Source of the DNA: Bradyrhizobium zhengyangense
GTDB lineage: Bacteria > Pseudomonadota > Alphaproteobacteria > Rhizobiales > Xanthobacteraceae
Assembly (NCBI RefSeq): GCF_022012435.1
Contig: NZ_JAKLUA010000004.1
Coordinates: forward strand, 372,001 to 436,000
DNA: 64,000 bases
Reading direction: 5' to 3'
This document shows, in pieces, positions 32,987-59,081 of the stretch (position 1 is the stretch's first letter; every line of letters starts with the position of its first letter). The notes beneath the pieces were generated by a model. That model worked only from the letters and a program-made list of their open reading frames with translations. It was not told the origin of the DNA and did not search any database. The position numbers and the translations under genes are program-made.

Positions 32987-33066
32987 GTCATTCCGGGGCG
33001 CCTCGAAGAGGCGAACCCGGAATCTCGAGATTCCGGGCCAGGTCCTTCGGACCATCCCGGAATGAC
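32987..33066. repeat. Palindromic repeat, GTCATTCCGG family (copy 1)
   Basis: Outer arms GTCATTCCGG (32987-32996) and CCGGAATGAC (33057-33066) are perfect. Inside lies a 22-base perfect palindrome at 33016-33037 centred on TCTCGAGA. It separates the divergent MFS/spermidine-synthase and FAD oxidoreductase genes. A second copy of the family is at 52166-52262 in the dcw cluster. Confidence 0.85.
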
Positions 33067-40090: not shown

Positions 40091-40175
40091 GTCATTGCGA
40101 GCGCAGCGAAGCAATCCAGACTGTCACTGTGGAAAGATTCTGGATTGCTTCGTCGCAAGAGCTCTTCGCAATGAC
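40091..40175. repeat. Palindromic repeat, GTCATTGCGA family (copy 1)
   Basis: Outer arms GTCATTGCGA (40091-40100) and TCGCAATGAC (40166-40175); inner arms AAGCAATCCAGA (40109-40120) and TCTGGATTGCTT (40139-40150), both perfect. It sits between the convergent efflux and ligA genes. A second copy is at 55839-55955 between ftsW and murG. Confidence 0.9.
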
Positions 40176-51149: not shown

Positions 51150-52136
51150 CTATTTCCGCACCCGCCGCTCGGCGAGCTCGATCAGGCCGCGGAGGAAGTC
51201 GACGAAGGCGATGCCCTCGGCTTTCAGCGCCTTGGGGTAGAGCGAGGACTTGGTCAGCCCGGGCAGCGTGTTGGTTTCGAGATAGACCAGCCCCTTCTCC
51301 GAGACGATGAAGTCGGAGCGGGAATAGCCGGTGCAGGACATCGCCCGGTGCGCCAGCATCGCCTGGGTCTTGAGCGCGGCGGTGATTTCGGGCGTGAAGC
51401 GGCCGGGGCAGATCTCCTGGGTCGTCGACAGCAGATATTTGGCGGCGTAGTCGAAATTGCCCTCGCCCGGAATGATCTCGATCGGCGGCAGCGAGACGAT
51501 CGATCCATCCAGCCGCTCCAGCACGCCGCAGGTCGCCTCGATGCCCGCGATGTAGGGCTCGATCACATACTCTTCGTGCTTGGCGGCGTTGCGAACGGCG
51601 ATGAGATCCTGCTTCGCGTTGACGAAGATCAGGCCGTAGCTCGAGCCGTCGCGCGCCGGCTTTGCGATCAGCCTTCCATGGTCGGCGAAAGCATCATCGA
51701 TATCCTCGAGCGCAATGCCCACAGGCGGCGTCACGCCGCCGAGCGCGGCAAAGCGCTTGGCCGCGATCTTGTCGAAGGCAAGATGGGAGGAGGCCGAGCC
51801 GGAGCCGGTGAACGGCACGCCGCGCGTCTCGCACATCAGCTGCAATTCGCCGTTCTCGGCGCAGCCGCCATGCAGGCTCAGCACCAGCACGCGATCTTCC
51901 GCCTTGGCCTGGTCGAGCGCTTGCGCCAGCGGAATGCCACGCGTTCCTGGCTTGAACTCGTCTTCGAACGGCCTGACATGTTCGAGCAGTTGCTTCGATT
52001 GCACGACATGCACCTTGTCCTCGACGTCCCAGAACCAGAGATCTGCCTCGGGCAGAGCCTGGTGCAGCGCCTGGGCTGAAGCGACCGAAACCAGACGTTC
52101 GCGATTGGAGCCGCCGAAGAGGATGGTGATGCGCAT
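51150..52136 (-). CDS. ddl: D-alanine--D-alanine ligase
   Basis: 328 aa, ATP-grasp. The N-terminal motif GGSNRERLVSVASA holds the D-Ala-binding Glu; LHGGCAENGELQLMCETRGVPFTGSGSASSHLAFDK is the family block; KPARDGSSYGL is the ATP loop; FDYAAKYLL holds the active-site Tyr; ETNTLPGLTKSSLYPKAL is the metal and phosphate site. It makes D-Ala-D-Ala for MurF. Several motifs are slightly unlike the common DdlB (HGGCAE in place of HGxxGEDG), so it forms a divergent subgroup. It sits in the dcw place of ddlB. Confidence 0.9.
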   Translation of the reverse strand: MRITILFGGSNRERLVSVASAQALHQALPEADLWFWDVEDKVHVVQSKQLLEHVRPFEDEFKPGTRGIPLAQALDQAKAEDRVLVLSLHGGCAENGELQLMCETRGVPFTGSGSASSHLAFDKIAAKRFAALGGVTPPVGIALEDIDDAFADHGRLIAKPARDGSSYGLIFVNAKQDLIAVRNAAKHEEYVIEPYIAGIEATCGVLERLDGSIVSLPPIEIIPGEGNFDYAAKYLLSTTQEICPGRFTPEITAALKTQAMLAHRAMSCTGYSRSDFIVSEKGLVYLETNTLPGLTKSSLYPKALKAEGIAFVDFLRGLIELAERRVRK

Positions 52137-52165
52137 GTTTTTTGGTCCGTCACCTGTCTATGTTC

Positions 52166-52262
52166 GTCATTCCGGAGCGATGCGCAGCATCGAACTATGG
52201 TTCGCACTTGCGCACCTGAGAATCTCGGGATTCCGGGTTGCGCTTCGTGCCCCCGGAATGAC
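52166..52262. repeat. Palindromic repeat, GTCATTCCGG family (copy 2), between murB and ddl
   Basis: Outer arms GTCATTCCGG (52166-52175) and CCGGAATGAC (52253-52262) are perfect and identical to those of copy 1 (32987-33066). It fills the 128-base murB-ddl spacer of the dcw cluster, so it should be transcribed as part of the operon. Confidence 0.85.
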
Positions 52263-52264
52263 GC

Positions 52265-53185
52265 TCACGCGGAAACCCCGATCCGCTTGATTTCCCAGTG
52301 CAGCTCGATTCCGGAATTTGCCTTCACGCGTTCGCGCACGGTCTCGCCGAGCGTCTCGATGTCGTGCGCGGTGGCCTCGCCCGTGTTGATCAGGAAGTTG
52401 CAGTGCATCTCGGACACCTGGGCACCACCGACCCGCAAACCACGGCAGCCGGCAGCATCGACAAGTTTCCAGGCGGAATGGCCCGGCGGATTCTTGAACG
52501 TCGATCCGCCGGTCTTTTCGCGGATCGGCTGCGCGGTCTCGCGGTGGGTCTGCACCTCCGCCATCCGCGCGCGGATCGCCTCCGCATCCCTGATCTCGCC
52601 GCGAAAGCGTGCGGACGTAAAGATGATCGAGGGATCGACACCGCTGCTGCGGTAGACGAACTTCATATCGGCGTTGGAGAAGACGTGCTTGGTGCCGTCG
52701 CGCCCGACCCCGCGCGCCTCGACCAGCACGTCCTTGGTCTCGCCGCCATTGGCGCCCGCATTCATCCGCAGTGCGCCGCCGATGGTACCGGGAATGCCGA
52801 AGTAGAATTCGAGCCCACCGATATTGGCGCCAGCCGCGACCTCCGCGACGCGCTTGTCGAGCGCGGCCGCCCCTGCGGTGACGACATCCCCACTCGCCGT
52901 CGCCTCACCGAAAGCGCGCGGCGCCAGCCGGATCACCACGCCCGCAATGCCGCCGTCGCGCACGATCAGGTTGGAGCCGACGCCGACGACATAGACCGGG
53001 ACGTCGCTGGCGAGATGCGCGAGGAAATAAGCGAGATCGTCCTCATCCGCCGGCGTGAACAGCACCTGCGCCGGCCCGCCGACGCGAAACCAGGTCAGCT
53101 CGGCCAGCGACTGGTTCGCAAGCAACCGACCGCGCAAGTCTGGCATCGCGGCTTTGAGTGAGGGGGTGATGTCGGGGAAGCTCAC
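52265..53185 (-). CDS. murB: UDP-N-acetylenolpyruvoylglucosamine reductase
   Basis: 306 aa. FAD-binding blocks are [16 protein letters not shown] and [20 protein letters not shown]; the catalytic Tyr/Ser region is [13 protein letters not shown] and [23 protein letters not shown]; the last Glu lies in [13 protein letters not shown]. It reduces UDP-GlcNAc-enolpyruvate to UDP-MurNAc with NADPH. It begins four bases after the murC stop. Confidence 0.96.
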
Positions 53186-53189
53186 TGCT

Positions 53190-54593
53190 CTACCCCAGCG
53201 CCTTCAACTGATCCGGCAGCGCATAGGCCCATTGCGTGATGTTGCCGGCGCCGAGACACACGACCAGATCGCCCGACTTGGCGAGCCCTTTGACGATGCC
53301 CGGAAGCTCCGTCGCTGCCGGCAGCGGGATCACCTCGCGATGGCCATGCGCGCGCAGGCCCGCGACGAAATGCTCGCGGTCGATGCCGTCGATCGGCGTC
53401 TCGCCCGCGGCATAGACGTCGGCGACAACAACCGCATCGGCATCGTTGAAGCAGGTGCAGAATTCCTCGAACAGCGATTGCAGGCGGGTGTAGCGATGCG
53501 GCTGCACCACGGCGATGATCTTGCCGTTGGTGGATTCCCGCGCCGCCTTCAGCACCGCCGCGATCTCGACGGGGTGATGGCCGTAATCGTCGATCACCGT
53601 GACGCCGTTCCACTCGCCTGTTTTGGTGAAGCGGCGCTTGACGCCGCCGAAGCCGGCGATGGCTTTACGGATCGCATCGTCCGACACGCCGAGCTCGCGC
53701 GCAACCGCGATTGCGGCCGTCGCGTTGGAGGCATTGTGGCGACCCGGCATCGGCAGCATGAGATCGGCGATCTCGGGCACGGCGCCGGTCTTGCGATCGC
53801 GGAATGCGACCTTGAATTTCGAGCCGCCACCCATCGGGGCGAGATCGAGCAGCCGCACGTCGGCCTGCGGATTCTCGCCATACGTGATGATACGCCGATC
53901 CTCGATCTTGCCGACGATGGTCTGCACCACGGGATGATCGATGCACATCACGGCAAAGCCGTAGAACGGCAGGTTCTCGACGAAATGGCGGAACGCATCC
54001 TGCACGGCATCGAACGTCTTGAAGTGATCGAGATGCTCGGGGTCGACATTGGTGACGATCGCGACATCCGTCGGCAGCTTCAAGAACGTGCCGTCGCTCT
54101 CGTCGGCTTCCACCACCATCCAGTCGCCGGCCCCCAGACGCGCGTTGGAGCCGTAGGCGTTGATGATGCCGCCGTTGATGACGGTCGGATCGAGCCCTCC
54201 GGCATCGAGCAGCGTTGCGACCATGGTGGTCGTCGTGGTTTTGCCATGCGTGCCGGCAATTGCGACGCAGCTCTTCAGCCGCATCAGCTCGGCCAGCATC
54301 TCGGCGCGGCGCACCACGGGAATGCGACGCTCGCGCGCCGCCATCAGTTCCGGATTGTCGCGCTTGATCGCGGTGGAGACGACCACGACCTCGGCGCCAT
54401 CGACATTCTCGGCCTTATGGCCGACCGAGACCTTTGCGCCCTTCTTGCGCAGGCGGTCGAGATTGTAATTGTCGGAGGCGTCCGAGCCCTGCACGGCATA
54501 GCCGAGATTGACCAGCACCTCGGCGATGCCGCTCATGCCGATCCCGCCGATCCCGACGAAGTGGATGGGTCCGATCTCGCGCGGCAGTCTCAT
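53190..54593 (-). CDS. murC: UDP-N-acetylmuramate--L-alanine ligase
   Basis: 467 aa from ATG 54593, with AGGGA upstream. The N-terminal nucleotide motif is [17 protein letters not shown]; the ATP loop is [11 protein letters not shown]; the later ligase motifs are [36 protein letters not shown] and [10 protein letters not shown]. It adds the first L-Ala to UDP-MurNAc. An in-frame extension to 54647 lacks a start signal. Part of the dcw operon. Confidence 0.96.
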
Positions 54594-54710
54594 GCTCTGT
54601 TCCCTGACCTCGCCGCCTTGCGCAGGCGGCGTCTGGATCACGGCCAAATCAGCCGCGCCGTCCTTACTGGATGCCCCGCTTTGGAAGACGAAGACAAGGG
54701 CTTTTTCGCG

Positions 54711-55811
54711 TCAGATTCCCGCGACTTTGACCACGAGATCGGCCAGCCGCTCGGCGGCGTCGAGCCGGCCTGCCGCTTTCGCCGCGGCAGCCATGGCGGC
54801 AAGGCGCGCCGGCTCGGCGGCAAAGGCGGAGATCTCCGAGGCGAGCCGATCGGAGGTAAATTCGGTCTGCGGAATACGAACCGCGCCGTCGACCTTGGCC
54901 AGCACGCCCGCATTGGCGAACTGGTCCTGGTCGATCGAGCCCGGCAACGGCACCAGGATCGAGGGCCGCCCGATCGCGGCCAATTCGGCCACAGTGCCCG
55001 CGCCGGAACGCGACACGATCAAATGGTTGGAGGCGAGACGCGCCGGCAGATCGGTGAAGAAAGGCGCGAGCTCCACCTTGATCTTGAGCTTGTCGTAGAC
55101 CGCGCGCACGCGCGTCATGTCCTCGTCGCGGACCTGCTGGGTGAGGACGAGCCGCCCCCACAGCGCGGGCTCGAGCCGCTCGATCGCATCGGGCACAATG
55201 TCGGCCATGATGCGTGCGCCCTGGCTGCCGCCGACAACGAGCAGACGCAGCGGTCCGTTCACTTCCGGTGCGGCATAGGGCACGGCGGCGGCCGCAAGGA
55301 CCGCGGGACGCATCGGCGTGCCGACCGTCGTGGTCTTGCCCGCGAGCGCAGGATCGCGGTCGAGCACGCCCGGCAACGACGTTGCGATGGCCTGGACGCG
55401 GCTCGACAGGAAACGGTTGGCGCGGCCAAGCACGGCATTGGCCTCGTGGATGATCCCAGGCACGCCCGCGAACTTTGCCGCAACCAATGGCGGCAAGGTC
55501 GGGTAACCGCCGAAGCCGACGACAGCAGCGGGCTTCAGCCGCTTGATCAGCCGGTAGGCAGAGAGCGTGCCGGTCGCGAGCGTGAGGCCGGCATAGACGA
55601 GTTGCAATGGATTGCGGCCGCGCGCGGTCTCGCTCGCGACAACGTCGATCATGTCCTTGCTGAACAACCCGCTATAGCGCAGCGCGCGCTCGTCGGTGAC
55701 GAGACGCACGCGAAAGCCGCGCCGGATCAATTGGACGCCGAGCGCCTCGGCCGGAAACAGATGGCCGCCGGTGCCGCCCGCGGCGAGAAGAATCAAGGGG
55801 GAGGTGTCCAT
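54711..55811 (-). CDS. murG: UDP-GlcNAc:lipid I N-acetylglucosaminyltransferase
   Basis: 366 aa from ATG 55811. The N-terminal G-loop is LAAGGTGGHLFPAEAL; the second is VVGFGGYPTLPPL; the C-terminal donor site is LLVVGGSQGAR and SRSGAGTVAELAAIGRPSILVPLPGSIDQDQFANA. It converts lipid I to lipid II at the inner face of the membrane. The spacer before it carries a dispersed palindrome. Confidence 0.96.
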   Translation of the reverse strand: MDTSPLILLAAGGTGGHLFPAEALGVQLIRRGFRVRLVTDERALRYSGLFSKDMIDVVASETARGRNPLQLVYAGLTLATGTLSAYRLIKRLKPAAVVGFGGYPTLPPLVAAKFAGVPGIIHEANAVLGRANRFLSSRVQAIATSLPGVLDRDPALAGKTTTVGTPMRPAVLAAAAVPYAAPEVNGPLRLLVVGGSQGARIMADIVPDAIERLEPALWGRLVLTQQVRDEDMTRVRAVYDKLKIKVELAPFFTDLPARLASNHLIVSRSGAGTVAELAAIGRPSILVPLPGSIDQDQFANAGVLAKVDGAVRIPQTEFTSDRLASEISAFAAEPARLAAMAAAAKAAGRLDAAERLADLVVKVAGI

Positions 55812-55838
55812 GACGATGCCTTTTACAAGGTCTTTCCC

Positions 55839-55955
55839 GTCATTGCGAGCGAAGCGAAGCAATCCAGAATCGCTTCACGGGGATAGTCTGGATTGCTTCG
55901 TCGCTTCAGTGCAAAATTGCTCTGCAATTTTGTCACGAGCTCCTCGCAATAACGG
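55839..55955. repeat. Palindromic repeat, GTCATTGCGA family (copy 2), between ftsW and murG
   Basis: GTCATTGCGA (55839-55848), inner arms with AAGCAATCCAGA and TCTGGATTGCTT (about 55857-55898) match copy 1 at 40091-40175 exactly in the stems. The far end reads CTCGCAATAACG, a decayed arm. An extra GCAAAATTGC/GCAATTTTG pair is inserted on the right. It fills the ftsW-murG spacer. Confidence 0.85.
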
Positions 55956-55956
55956 C

Positions 55957-57108
55957 TTACGCGTAGCTGCGCATCGCCTCGGCGTGGCCGCTGGCCTCGA
56001 CCTCGGTGCGCGGGCGCAGGCGCGTCAGGGCCAGCATCATGCCGACGCCATAGGAGAGCGACACGATTGAGGAACCGCCGTAGGAGATGAACGGCAGCGT
56101 CATGCCCTTGGCGGGAATGAGCTGGAGGTTGACCGACATGTTGATCGCCGCCTGCACGCCGAACAGGATCGCTAGCCCAGAGGCCGCAAAGCGCGAGAAC
56201 ATGTCCTCATTGGCATAGGCGCGCGACAGCGTGCGGATCACGACGAAGGCAAACAGCGCCAGCATGGCGAGGCACAGGATAATGCCGAACTCTTCGGCGG
56301 CAACCGCGAACACGAAGTCGGTGTGACTGTCAGGCAGGCTGCGTTTTGCAATTCCCTCGCCCGGTCCCAAGCCGAACCAGCCGCCGTTGTAGAAAGCCTC
56401 CATCGCGGTATCGACCTGGAAGGTGTCACCTGAAGCCGGATTCATGAAGCGCTTGATGCGGCCGGCGACGTGCGGGACGAACAGATAGGCGCTGAACAGG
56501 CCGGCCGCGCCGAGGCCGGCAAGGCCAAACACCCAGATCATGCGCATGCCCGCGATGAAGAACAGCGAGCCCCACACCATCAGGATCAGCATGGTCTGGC
56601 CGAAGTCCGGCTCCATCACCAGCAGGGAGACGAGCATCAGCAGCAGTACAAGTGCCATTGAGGTCGCCGGCATCTCCGGCCGCTTGGTCGATTCCGCGAA
56701 CAGCCAGGCCGCGATGACGACGAAGGAGGGCTTTGCGATTTCGGAGGCCTGGATATTGATGCCGAGCAGCGTGATCCAGCGCCGCGAGCCCTTCACTTCG
56801 GGGCCGACCGCGAGCGTCACCACGATCAGGATGATGCTCAGCGTGAAGATGATCAGCGCCGAACGGCGGATCGTGCGCGGCGACAGAAAGGAAACGCCGA
56901 GCAGCACCATGAAGGACGGCGCCAGGAACATCACGTGACGGCTGAAGAAATGGAAGGGATCGAGGCCGATACGGGTCGCGACCGATGGGCTCGCCGCCAG
57001 TGACAGGATGACGCCTGTCAGCATCAGCAACAGGATCGCGCCGAACAGCGGCTTGTCGACGGTCCACCACCACTCGGAAAAGGGGGTGCGTTCTTCACGG
57101 GAGAGCAT
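55957..57108 (-). CDS. ftsW: Septal peptidoglycan polymerase FtsW (SEDS family)
   Basis: 383 aa with ten hydrophobic segments. SEDS landmarks are KGSRRWITLLGINIQASEIAKPSFV, the catalytic-Asp region FVFAVAAEEFG, and LPFISYGGSSIVSLSYGVGMMLAL near the end. FtsW polymerises lipid II at the septum with FtsI. It follows a 180-base spacer containing a palindromic repeat. Confidence 0.95.
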   Translation of the reverse strand: MLSREERTPFSEWWWTVDKPLFGAILLLMLTGVILSLAASPSVATRIGLDPFHFFSRHVMFLAPSFMVLLGVSFLSPRTIRRSALIIFTLSIILIVVTLAVGPEVKGSRRWITLLGINIQASEIAKPSFVVIAAWLFAESTKRPEMPATSMALVLLLMLVSLLVMEPDFGQTMLILMVWGSLFFIAGMRMIWVFGLAGLGAAGLFSAYLFVPHVAGRIKRFMNPASGDTFQVDTAMEAFYNGGWFGLGPGEGIAKRSLPDSHTDFVFAVAAEEFGIILCLAMLALFAFVVIRTLSRAYANEDMFSRFAASGLAILFGVQAAINMSVNLQLIPAKGMTLPFISYGGSSIVSLSYGVGMMLALTRLRPRTEVEASGHAEAMRSYA

Positions 57109-57194
57109 GGGCGGCCGCTTTCGGACAGAGGTCCGTCCATTGGTCGCCGAGGTTGGTTACCGGGAGGTTAATAGACCGTTCAAGTTTTGAAGAG

Positions 57195-57284
57195 TCTCGT
57201 GCCCCGGACGCCGCGCAGCGCGGCGCCTCTTCGCGGCGCGGTGCGCTGCAGAGCCGCGCGCTGCACCGCGTCCGGGACACGAGA
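57195..57284. repeat. Palindromic repeat between the unknown dcw gene and ftsW
   Basis: TCTCGTGCCCCGGACGC (57195-57211) and GCGTCCGGGACACGAGA (57268-57284) pair at 16 of 17 positions. The inner part is a GC-rich mix of GCGCGGCGC-type blocks. It lies in the spacer of the dcw cluster; a shortened relative is at 42389-42428. Confidence 0.8.
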
Positions 57285-57288
57285 GGCC

Positions 57289-57681
57289 TTACTCATAATT
57301 GATCGCGACGTCACCCGCGCGCTGATCGCGCTTGTAGACCTCGCCTGGCTCTGGAATGAAACCGATCCTGACCGACCGCTCGCTGCTCCAGGCGACCACG
57401 ACATCGAGATGCCCGGCCACGCTGACAAAGGTCGGTGTGTCCTCGGGCGAGAAGGTCCGGCCGCGCGCCACGAGGCTGGCTTGCGTACTGTCGGTTGCTC
57501 CGCAGGTCTTCCAGACCACGACAACCAACTGACCACCGCCCGGGGAGGCAAATGCACTTTGACGAACGACGCGGCACGCGCCGAATTGGTGCATGAGGCT
57601 GTCAACGAGGACGACACCCAAAAAACCCATCGGAATAGCAAGAGCAGCGACGACAATTGCGATCCGGCGTCGCCGCGACAT
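57289..57681 (-). CDS. Small membrane-anchored protein of unknown function inside the dcw cluster
   Basis: 130 aa from ATG 57681, two bases after the murD stop, so probably translated from the same message. One N-terminal membrane helix (about 7-28: IAIVVAALAIPMGFLGVVLV) follows a basic start MSRRRR; the remainder (about 29-130) should lie in the periplasm and is rich in Val, Ser and charged residues (GGGQLVVVVWKTCGATDSTQASL, VYKRDQRAGDVAINYE). It matches no standard dcw product (FtsL, MraZ and others have other sizes and places). A structural or regulatory role at the divisome is only a guess. Confidence 0.75.
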   Translation of the reverse strand: MSRRRRIAIVVAALAIPMGFLGVVLVDSLMHQFGACRVVRQSAFASPGGGQLVVVVWKTCGATDSTQASLVARGRTFSPEDTPTFVSVAGHLDVVVAWSSERSVRIGFIPEPGEVYKRDQRAGDVAINYE

Positions 57682-57683
57682 GC

Positions 57684-59081
57684 TCACACCGCCGGCTTCA
57701 CGCCCGGCAGCGCCTGCACCAGCTCGCGGAACTTTGTGCCGCGGATCTCGAAGTTGCGGTACTGGTCGAATGAGGCGCAGGCCGGCGACAGCAGCACGAC
57801 CGCGTCGGCAAGACCCGATGCTTCCGCGTCGCGCGCGGCGTGCTCGACAGCAACGTCCAGCGTCTGGCTGATCTCGTGCGCGACCGTACCGAGTGTGCCG
57901 GAAAACTCCGGCGCGGCCTCGCCGATCAGATAGGCCTTGCGGATGCGCGGGAAGAAACCGGTCAAGCTGGTGATGCCGCCCGCCTTGGGCTTGCCGCCGG
58001 CGATCCAGAAGATGTCCGCGAAGGACGACAGCGCATGCGCTGTGGCGTCGGCGTTGGTGCCCTTGGAATCGTTGACGAACAGCACATTGCCGCGGCGGCC
58101 GACCTGCTCCATCCGGTGCGCCAGGCCCGGAAAGCTGCGCAGGCCGTTCTGAAGCACGTCGAGGCTGATGCCCATCGCGAGCGCGGCTGCGGCGGCGCAG
58201 GCGGCGTTCTGCGCGTTGTGCAGGCCGCGCAGCGAGCCGATGCCGCCAAGCTTGGCGATCTCGTTGCGGGCGCCGCCGGAGGTGCGCACGATGGTTCCGT
58301 GCTCGACATGGATGCCTGAAGCGAGCGGATTCTTGACGGAGATGCGCACCACGTTCTTGCCGGCGCGGTCGAGCCGATCGGCAATGTCGCGGCAATAGCC
58401 GTCATCGACGCCGACGATCGACGTGCCGCCTGCCTGCACGTTCGCAACCAGGCGCTCCTTCACTTCAGCGTAATGCTCGATGGTGCCGTGACGATCGATG
58501 TGATCCTCGCTGACATTGAGCAGGATGCCGACGGAGGGATCGAGCAAGGGCGTGAGGTCGATCTGATAGGACGACATCTCGATGACATGGACGCGGCCCG
58601 TGCGCGGCGGCTCCAGCGACAGGATCGCGGTGCCGATATTGCCGCCCATCTGGGTGTCGTAGCCGGCGACCTTGGTCAGATGCGCGATCAAGGCCGTCGT
58701 TGTCGACTTGCCGTTGGTACCGGTGATGGCAACGAACGGCGCGTTCGGGGCGTGACGGCGCCGCTCGCGGCAGAACAGCTCGATGTCGCCGATCACCTCG
58801 ACGCCCGCCTCGCGCGCCTTCAGCGCGCTCCAGTGCGGCACCGGATGGGTCAGCGGCACGCCGGGCGCAAGCACCAACGCTGCGAAATTGTCCCAGGCAA
58901 CATTGCGCAGATCCGCGGTGATGAAGCCGGCCTGCGCCGCCTTGGCGACGTTCTCGGCATTGTCGTCGGCAGCGATCACCTCGGCGCCGCCGGCCTTCAG
59001 CGCACGGCAGGAGGCGAGCCCCGAGCCGCCGAGGCCGAACACCGCGACCGTCTTGCCGGCGAAGGATGTGACGGGGATCAT
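57684..59081 (-). CDS. murD: UDP-N-acetylmuramoylalanine--D-glutamate ligase
   Basis: 465 aa. [14 protein letters not shown] is the N-terminal nucleotide site; ATP loop [49 protein letters not shown] and [16 protein letters not shown] follow as the Mur ligase set; end region [24 protein letters not shown]. It adds D-Glu. It starts ten bases after the mraY stop. Confidence 0.96.

What the first reader, a model, noticed from the sequence alone, without database searches (positions are those of the whole stretch)
52166..57284. Three palindromic repeat families fill spacers of the dcw cluster
The spacers ddl-murB, murG-ftsW and ftsW-unknown gene each hold a repeat from a different family (GTCATTCCGG, GTCATTGCGA and CTCGTGCCCCGGACGC types), each with a relative elsewhere in the window. 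In the transcript these hairpins may tune mRNA stability or expression of the following gene inside an essential operon.
Basis: partly seen in the sequence, partly recalled or inferred. Interest (0 to 1): 0.5.

Follow-up and report, generated by a model that had tools for sequence, protein, structure and literature searches.

The report
Swappable hairpin repeats between cell-wall genes
Three short palindromic DNA repeats of known kinds sit right behind gene stop codons in the cell-division and cell-wall gene cluster of a Bradyrhizobium; related species often keep a repeat in the same gap but swap its family, which fits mobile repeats in tolerated places better than one conserved switch.

Summary
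The three repeats are real. They are inverted doublets of REP palindromes: A 52165-52263 (GTCATTCCGG type), B 55838-55954 (GTCATTGCGAG type), C 57195-57284 (CTCGTG type). A and B have a relative elsewhere in the window; C has none there but is repeated in the genome. Each starts 1-4 nt after a stop codon and would fold strongly in the operon's mRNA (z -4.7 to -7.4). A and B resemble published Bradyrhizobium REPs (CGTC superfamily, Br-REP1); C's sequence turned up in no paper on repeats that I could search.

In 80 other dcw loci the same spacers are empty in some and filled in others, and one spacer holds different families in different species (ftsW-murG: 38 of 43 loci lacking B's family hold another; murB-ddl: 0 of 26). 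Three spacers elsewhere in the genome behave alike, so this is not special to dcw. Around ftsW the family follows the coding tree no better than shuffled labels. Yet REP arms differ by only 0.6-9%, against 30-48% between REPs and in flanks, and 20-26% at third codon positions.

Best reading: REP doublets in tolerated slots, transcribed as interchangeable hairpins; an effect on mRNA is plausible but unmeasured.

The parts
52165..52263 (-). Repeat A in the murB-ddl spacer: inverted doublet of CGTC-tagged REPs (ATTCCGGG/CCCGGAAT arms); the inner arm of one REP is replaced by a GGTGCGCAAGTGCGAACC hairpin module
   Evidence: heads; transcript fold z -4.71; comparison by eye with relatives; murB stop codon at 52265-52267, one base away
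55838..55954 (-). Repeat B in the ftsW-murG spacer: inverted doublet of CGTC-tagged REPs (ATTGCGAG type)
   Evidence: heads; fold z -6.41; ftsW stop codon at 55957-55959, two bases away
55908..55938 (-). Extra palindrome (TGCAAAATTGC..GCAATTTTG) inside one arm of repeat B
   Evidence: read from the sequence; the same module in L008, a variant in L203 at another spacer
57195..57284 (-). Repeat C in the spacer before ftsW: CTCGTG-type doublet whose middle appears deleted, leaving one long hairpin
   Evidence: heads; fold z -7.36; longer copies at the same place in relatives; stop codon of the unknown gene at 57289-57291, four bases away
52265..53185 (-). murB (gene before repeat A)
   Evidence: ORF; located in relatives by tblastn
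51150..52136 (-). ddl (gene after repeat A)
   Evidence: ORF
55957..57108 (-). ftsW (gene before repeat B, after repeat C)
   Evidence: ORF; query
54711..55811 (-). murG (gene after repeat B), start as chosen
57289..57681 (-). unknown gene (130 aa, hydrophobic N-terminal stretch) before repeat C
   Evidence: translation; no Pfam match over cut-off; my gene caller saw only a 76 aa part of it
32987..33066 (.). relative of repeat A elsewhere in the window
40091..40175 (.). relative of repeat B elsewhere in the window

Best explanation
The three repeats are REP doublets (two short palindromes in inverted orientation, tags outermost). A and B are of the CGTC kind, C of a look-alike CTCGTG family. 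Each sits in a slot: the few bases between a stop codon and the next gene's leader where extra DNA is tolerated. SHOWN: structure, position, and that across the genus several such slots stay occupied while the family changes. INFERRED: the doublets are transcribed with the operon as stop-adjacent hairpins. The likeliest effect is generic and small, shared by all families: a barrier to 3'-to-5' exonucleases, or slower ribosome release at the upstream stop codon, affecting mainly the gene before the repeat (murB, ftsW, the unknown gene). I put about 0.45 on a measurable effect. Slot contents change by new elements landing in or beside old ones and by exchange of spacers between species; I cannot apportion the two.
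For: Anatomy and strong folds. Copies genome-wide with zero reversed-pattern controls. Start close behind the stop across species: medians 3, 4 and 1 nt for the 3, T and A families in ftsW-murG, 2 nt for murB-ddl (projected stop), 4 nt for T in murD-ftsW spacers under 300 nt; in the own-genome sample 10 of 11 co-directional doublets are nearer the stop than the next start (recounted from the rows). Slot with changing family: of other loci lacking the window's family, 38 of 43 (ftsW-murG) and 29 of 40 (murD-ftsW) show a head of another; outside dcw, 21 of 21 (rhodanese-sulfurtransferase), 15 of 17 (spacer C1:167858-167987) and 4 of 7 (vWA-rhodanese) (counted). Baseline, co-directional spacers of the own genome: any head 18 of 147 at 100-250 nt and 24 of 80 over 250 nt; paired heads 10 of 147 and 2 of 80. 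Landing in older repeats: a GTAG doublet inside T in L022 and inside type 3 in L033; a CTCGCAATGAC remnant exact or with one change in 26 of 30 T alleles of ftsW-murG. Arms differ little: T arms 0.6-8.2%, type-3 arms 1.8-9.2%, between REPs 30-34%, linker and leader 37-43%, third codon positions 20-25%; murB-ddl arms 2-5%, loops 33-43%, leader 46%. Apical loops of murB-ddl elements vary in sequence yet mostly stay self-complementary: means -6.5 and -7.7 kcal/mol against -4.5 and -4.6 for chimeric halves.
Against: No expression data. Stop proximity is not above chance for such short spacers: 13 of 27 stop-side distances within 15 nt, mean 9.8 and maximum 17 in 2000 uniform placements. Not all families hug the stop: GTAG types in ftsW-murG start 16-21 nt and CTCCC types in murC-murB a median 44 nt behind it. 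murB-ddl never swaps family: 26 of 26 loci lacking the A-type doublet are empty. 29 of 40 at murD-ftsW counts any single head in spacers up to 1.5 kb, where chance heads are commoner. T loops are also fairly conserved (7% and 13%), so the low variation is not confined to arms. Arms show almost no compensatory change (1 of 25 and 3 of 36 pairs), so RNA structure as the selected trait is not demonstrated for them. Whole T spacers fold only modestly better than shuffles (median z -3.16, 18 of 30 under -3). 122 of 406 and 50 of 482 chimeric loops are as stable as the median natural loop.
Confidence: 0.6

Rival explanations
1. Neutral passengers: the doublets are (formerly) mobile repeats that survive only where they break nothing; position and turnover follow from tolerance, and they have no effect on the operon.
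For: Loci without the repeat exist for each of the three spacers; stop proximity is not above uniform placement; the ddl-ftsQ spacer, 339-352 nt in most loci, shows a head in only 3 of the 63 read; family states carry no phylogenetic signal in two spacers.
Against: REP arms differ several-fold less than adjacent intergenic DNA and third codon positions; 75 of 80 ftsW-murG spacers are assigned to a repeat family despite at least 33 state changes.
Confidence: 0.4
2. Allele exchange: the patchy families are a few old spacer alleles traded between species by homologous recombination, not repeated insertion.
For: T alleles of ftsW-murG share a slot-specific sequence: of 11 exact copies of a 21-mer, found in 8 of 60 genomes, 6 are in this slot and 4 in one other shared context. 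T spacer distances do not follow coding distances (Mantel r 0.006, p 0.44); coding windows lose most of their own linkage within about 400 nt (mean r 0.23 to 0.14), though a star-like tree could also give this.
Against: No association of spacer state (T or 3) with the last 96 nt of ftsW (p 0.28) or first 60 nt of murG (p 0.73), although the 25-29 nt leader is associated (0 of 2000 permutations); type-3 spacers do follow coding distance weakly (r 0.14, p 0.04); nested insertions show that new elements do land.
Confidence: 0.45
3. DNA-level role: the sequence-conserved arms bind a protein (gyrase, IHF or another), and the RNA hairpin is incidental.
For: Arms are conserved in sequence with almost no compensatory change. 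Interaction of REPs of other bacteria with gyrase, IHF and DNA polymerase I is stated in PMC5082802 (section 15).
Against: Families with unrelated arms replace each other in one slot; no binding motif was tested.
Confidence: 0.12
4. The repeats are transcription terminators or carry promoters that split the cluster.
For: Strong hairpins.
Against: No excess of terminator-like sites in 51900-57800 (4 found, 3.9 expected), none on the transcribed strand within a repeat; one promoter-like site, inside murC, with 0.8 expected.
Confidence: 0.05

Closest known systems
CGTC-tagged REPs, families CGTC-1 and CGTC-3 (Di Nocera et al. 2013, PMC3733652)
   Same: CGTC at the outer ends, arms that begin with AT, frequent inverted doublets, CGTC-1 and CGTC-3 reported in Bradyrhizobium, REPs mostly between co-directional or convergent genes, no transposase gene flanked by CGTC repeats (passages and section 14; own check). 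Assigning A to CGTC-1 and B to CGTC-3 is my inference; the figure with the consensus sequences is not held.
   Different: B carries an extra palindrome in one arm and A a hairpin module in place of an inner arm; C has CGTG instead of CGTC and arms that do not begin with AT.
Br-REP1 and Br-REP2 (Hahn et al. 2016, PMC5082802)
   Same: A is a composite of palindromes whose centre (CCGGAATCCCGAGATTC..) resembles Br-REP1 CCGGAATCTCGAGATTCCGG; Br-REP2's printed sequence ends in CCCCGGAATGA, the complement of the A-type head (section 15).
   Different: The section read treats them as 3'-UTR elements; it does not mention dcw spacers, swapping of families at one place, or the CTCGTG family.
REPINs with RAYT transposases (GTAG type)
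   Same: Inverted doublets forming one hairpin; two of the three Y1_Tnp genes of this genome are flanked by GTAG repeats (L002, L003).
   Different: A, B and C lack the GTAG tag. None of the three genes has a CGTC or CTCGTG repeat on both sides, though L001 has an A-type doublet about 350 nt downstream and L002 a B-type remnant on one side.
E. coli REPs within 15 nt of a stop codon that stall ribosomes (Liang et al. 2015; not held, seen only as described in passages of PMC5082802 and PMC12306157)
   Same: Stop-adjacent hairpins, here at 1, 2 and 4 nt.
   Different: No ribosome data here, and the proximity is about what the short spacers give.

Membership tests
CGTC REPs (repeats A and B) | CGTC (or TGTC/CCTC) tag at the outer end | tested here: met
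   A: CGTC at both ends. B: CGTC at one end, CGTT at the other
CGTC REPs (repeats A and B) | 8-9 bp stem beginning with AT, CCA-like tail | tested here: inconclusive
   One REP of A pairs ATTCCGGG/CCCGGAAT with tail CCC; the other has lost its inner arm. B: ATTGC/GCAAT pair with CCA tail, inner bases mismatch. Consensus figure not held
CGTC REPs (repeats A and B) | Many copies, often in inverted doublets, mostly not between divergent genes | tested here: met
   121 pattern matches; of 22 doublets of all families in the sample 11 co-directional, 8 convergent, 3 divergent
CGTC REPs (repeat C) | CGTC tag and arms beginning with AT | tested here: not met
   C has CGTG and GTCCCGGAC-type arms; C is therefore filed only as REP-like
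Br-REP1 (repeat A) | Central palindrome CCGGAATCTCGAGATTCCGG | tested here: inconclusive
   A reads CCGGAATCCCGAGATTCTCAGG; several relatives at the same place hold the exact palindrome
RAYT-mobilised REPIN | GTAG tag and a RAYT gene flanked by the same repeat | tested here: not met
   of the three RAYT-like genes found, two are flanked by GTAG types and none by a CGTC or CTCGTG pair
Stop-codon REP translation regulator | REP within 15 nt of a stop codon | tested here: met
   1, 2 and 4 nt
Stop-codon REP translation regulator | Stalls ribosomes and lowers expression | not testable with these tools
   needs ribosome profiling or reporters
Known Rfam RNA family | Match at the gathering score | tested here: not met
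   0 matches in the window

The most novel reading that the evidence does not exclude
Some gene junctions of Bradyrhizobium, ftsW-murG foremost, require a strong hairpin just behind the stop codon, and the cell fills this need with whichever repeat family is at hand: mobile palindromes of unrelated sequence are functionally interchangeable parts, the slot is conserved and the sequence is not.
Probability: 0.2. Interest if true: 0.65.

Novelty: new member of a known kind. Interest (0 to 1): 0.4.

Why it matters
It is open whether REPs are parasites or parts, and what moves the CGTC kind, for which Di Nocera et al. found no dedicated transposase. A fixed junction in an essential operon where unrelated families replace one another across a genus gives natural presence, absence and swap variants of the same genes, so both questions become testable by RNA sequencing of available strains. 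For the finding as given, the repeats themselves are ordinary.

Tried and rejected
Stop-codon targeting as a special property: not shown, because uniform placement in the same short spacers gives nearly the same count.

dcw as a special REP hotspot: three doublets in 5.1 kb is dense for this genome, but three other spacers, chosen because the window's genome has a repeat there, show the same swapping. One search was a first pass that silently lost all loci lying on the minus strand (14 of 30 and 17 of 30); one search oriented them and replaces it, with partly looser head patterns. The 30 loci per comparator are the best-scoring of 80 genomes searched, so they are the closer relatives.

Composite ancestor (T plus 3 side by side, then differential loss): T lies within about 65 nt of a type-3 head or remnant at 6 of 15 fetched T loci of the own genome, and a linker CTGCATC..CGTCATTGCGA recurs at 6 places, so composites exist. 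But no full T plus 3 pair is seen at ftsW-murG in the table, so I do not rest on it.

Independent promoters or terminators: scan at chance level. Rfam: nothing. Compensatory pairs in arms: too few to argue from. Linked recombination tracts: no clear linkage of state to coding sequence next to ftsW-murG. Exceptions among the many uncorrected tests: ftsW 600-800 (p 0.04) and murG 600-800 (p 0.02); murG +900 (p 0.01) and, for murD-ftsW, murD -189 (p 0.006). murC-murB is linked to the first 300 nt of murB, and murB-ddl to the end of murB and to ddl +300 to +750, so the picture differs by spacer.

Rows dropped: searches left out 8 distant loci; one search's two-state tests used 61 T and type-3 rows (60 for murG windows) of 71; one search left out 15 loci by name and rows lacking genes (61 kept). 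One search used 21 of 30 T and 24 of 37 type-3 spacers, selected by intact heads and length (inner arms were not part of the selection). In one search the inner arms of murB-ddl were found in 33 and 32 of 46, within two mismatches of a pattern, which caps their measured diversity; one search used 33 and 31 loops. One search cut T spacers at 115 nt, inside the doublet (median z -2.4); one search repeats them whole. Type-3 spacers: 36 of 37 under z -3; short spacers 0 of 5; ddl-ftsQ 7 of 63. Positions in murB-ddl were projected from MurB alignments, so the uniform offset of 2 is to the projected stop; real stops lie a few bases further up in some species. Family states rest on head patterns and length, so truncated elements count as filled.

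Literature: two 13-base CTCGTG strings gave no paper and one 11-base string one unrelated paper (text only, no figures or supplements); searches for slot or family replacement listed nothing that describes it, by title and abstract; in PMC3686654 the passages found speak of new REP variants partly replacing older ones within genomes. The library holds open-licence papers only. Papers: PMC5082802 abstract, passages and section 15; PMC3733652 passages and section 14; PMC12306157 and PMC3686654 passages; Liang 2015 not held.
Full report
What was checked. The window is a Bradyrhizobium chromosome stretch: FtsW is 98% identical to several named Bradyrhizobium strains, and the nearest of the 80 dcw loci fetched, by identity over 6.7 kb of coding sequence, is L007, B. 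manausense BR 3351, at 92%. The genes murD, an unknown small gene, ftsW, murG, murC, murB, ddl and ftsQ run on the minus strand. Read on the transcript, A (52263 down to 52165) starts one base after the murB stop codon, B (55954 to 55838) two bases after that of ftsW, C (57284 to 57195) four bases after that of the unknown gene. Each has its tag at both outer ends, inverted, so each is a doublet. Each folds better than all 200 dinucleotide shuffles.

Families. A is of the GTCATTCCGG kind, with a centre like the published Br-REP1; B is of the GTCATTGCGAG kind; both fit the CGTC superfamily of Di Nocera et al. as described in the text. C has CTCGTG and arms GTCCCGGAC, so it fails two of the CGTC marks. 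Its 16-mer is present in 6 of 7 genomes of the genus (own included) and 36 of 149 of the family, the reversed-pattern control ringing once; its sequence was in no paper on repeats that I could search. A and B have relatives in the window, C has none. A pattern for the A and B kinds matches 121 times in the genome, one for C 21 times, controls 0. Three genes of the Y1_Tnp kind were found in the genome; two are flanked by GTAG repeats and none by a CGTC or C-type pair, though two have an A-type doublet or a B-type remnant on one side. This agrees with the published statement that CGTC repeats lack a dedicated transposase.

Comparison across species. In 80 loci of other genomes, nearly all titled Bradyrhizobium, murB-ddl is either 2-29 nt (26 of 71 other loci with this spacer) or holds an A-type doublet. 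ftsW-murG, counting the window, was assigned to B-type (3) in 37 of 80, to C-type (T) in 30, to a CCTCACCCTGAGG type (A) in 5, to a GTAG type (g) in 3, and is short in 5. murD-ftsW holds T in 37 of 77, another CGTC-like type in 25, a GTAG type in 3, and none of these in 12. murC-murB is 2-5 nt in 40 of 75, holds a CTCCCTCCCCCC type in 27 and something else in 8. ddl-ftsQ shows a head in 3 of 63. On a FastTree of the coding sequence the smallest number of changes of state is 33 for murD-ftsW (shuffle mean 33.9, 205 of 500 at or below) and 33 for ftsW-murG (35.1, 107 of 500), but below nearly all shuffles for murG-murC (30 against 36.0, 1 of 500) and murB-ddl (15 against 21.4, 2 of 500), and borderline for murC-murB (25 against 29.3, 23 of 500); 41 biallelic coding columns had on average 0.69 of the changes of their shuffles. 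So in the two spacers around ftsW the family is effectively unlinked to descent as this tree shows it. It is also unlinked to the adjacent 96 nt of ftsW and 60 nt of murG, though the leader before murG differs between T and type-3 alleles. Coding windows themselves keep little linkage beyond 400 nt, which speaks for recombination among these species or for a star-like tree.

Slots. Among other loci that lack the window's family, a head of another family is present in 38 of 43 at ftsW-murG and 29 of 40 at murD-ftsW, but 0 of 26 at murB-ddl. To see whether this is special to dcw, three other spacers that hold a repeat in the window's genome were compared in the 30 best-scoring of 80 genomes, the own genome included. 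vWA-rhodanese: A-type 22, CTCCCTCCCCCC-like 4, half remnants 2, none 1, no spacer found 1. Rhodanese-sulfurtransferase: A-type 9, other CGTC-like types 21. The spacer C1:167858-167987: B-type 13, CCTCAGG-like 10 (4 of them with one recognisable end), other CGTC-like 5, half remnant 1, none 1. So swapping is not confined to dcw. In the window's genome co-directional spacers show any head in 18 of 147 (100-250 nt) and 24 of 80 (over 250 nt), paired heads in 10 of 147 and 2 of 80; other species may be richer, so this baseline is rough.

How contents change. In L022 a GTAG doublet sits inside a T doublet and in L033 one sits inside a B-type doublet. T and A alleles of ftsW-murG keep the right end of a B-type doublet: in 15 of 30 T alleles exactly, in 11 more with one change. 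T and B-type elements also lie side by side at 6 of 15 fetched T loci of the own genome. The T allele of ftsW-murG has a sequence of its own: of 11 exact copies of a 21-mer in 60 genomes (8 have it), 6 are in this slot, 4 in one other shared context and 1 elsewhere. T alleles of this slot are therefore probably related by descent and have been exchanged or sorted among species rather than re-inserted each time.

What is conserved. In T alleles the arms differ by 0.6-8.2%, the loops by 7% and 13%, the stretch between the REPs by 30%, the linker and leader by 43% and 39%, the bases before the repeat by 48%, third codon positions of ftsW and murG by 20% and 25%; in type-3 alleles arms 1.8-9.2%, between REPs 34%, leader 37%. 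In murB-ddl arms 2-5%, loops 33% and 43%, between inner arms 35%, leader 46%, third positions 25-26%. Outer arms were used to find the elements, inner arms of T and type 3 were not. Constraint on the arms, or homogenisation among copies, is needed to explain this. Arms show hardly any compensatory changes, whereas the apical loops of the murB-ddl elements come in many sequences of which most remain self-complementary, and chimeras of halves fold less well on average. This fits loop modules being exchanged whole as well as it fits selection for shape.

Function. Position and hairpins fit it; published work reports transcripts over related repeats in B. japonicum and, for E. coli, ribosome stalling by REPs within 15 nt of a stop codon (as cited). 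Against a finely tuned role stand empty alleles, family swapping and the finding that stop proximity is not above what such short spacers give. I judge a small, generic, family-independent hairpin effect and no effect about equally likely.

Verdict. Ordinary elements of a known kind, one family apparently unnamed, in an essential operon; the worthwhile part is the conserved slot with changing contents.

Noticed in passing
window 57289-57681 (-): A 130 aa gene of unknown function between murD and ftsW. The murD-ftsW spacer is over 400 nt (room for it) in 31 of 77 loci, the window included, and shorter in 46; whether all long spacers hold this gene was not tested.
   Followed up: partly
window 54594-54710, murG-murC spacer: A GCGGGGCATCCAGTA half-repeat whose other arm has decayed recurs in nearly all of the short (116-124 nt) murG-murC spacers printed; it may be a fossil REP.
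   Followed up: no
L203 and window 55908-55938: A similar AATTTTG-rich palindrome module appears inside a B-type doublet at two unrelated spacers; another module, AACGGGTCC..GGCCCGATGACAGG, sits in both B-type (L013, L075) and T (L074) loops.
   Followed up: partly
L002 1404-2040: A RAYT-like gene with its GTAG repeats stands beside a CTCGCAATGACGG remnant of a B-type repeat, as if it had landed in one.
   Followed up: no
L047, L061, L068, L073, L074, murG-murC: murG-murC spacers of about 1.1 kb in five species, and murC-murB spacers of 867 and 1497 nt in L049 and L074; content not examined.
   Followed up: no
L006 and L037, murC-murB: A similar 247 nt insert, which looks like coding sequence, in two species of different clades.
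   Followed up: no
L012: A record titled Frankia sp. RB7 carries a Bradyrhizobium-like dcw cluster (FtsW 97% identical), so the record is probably mislabelled or contaminated.
   Followed up: no
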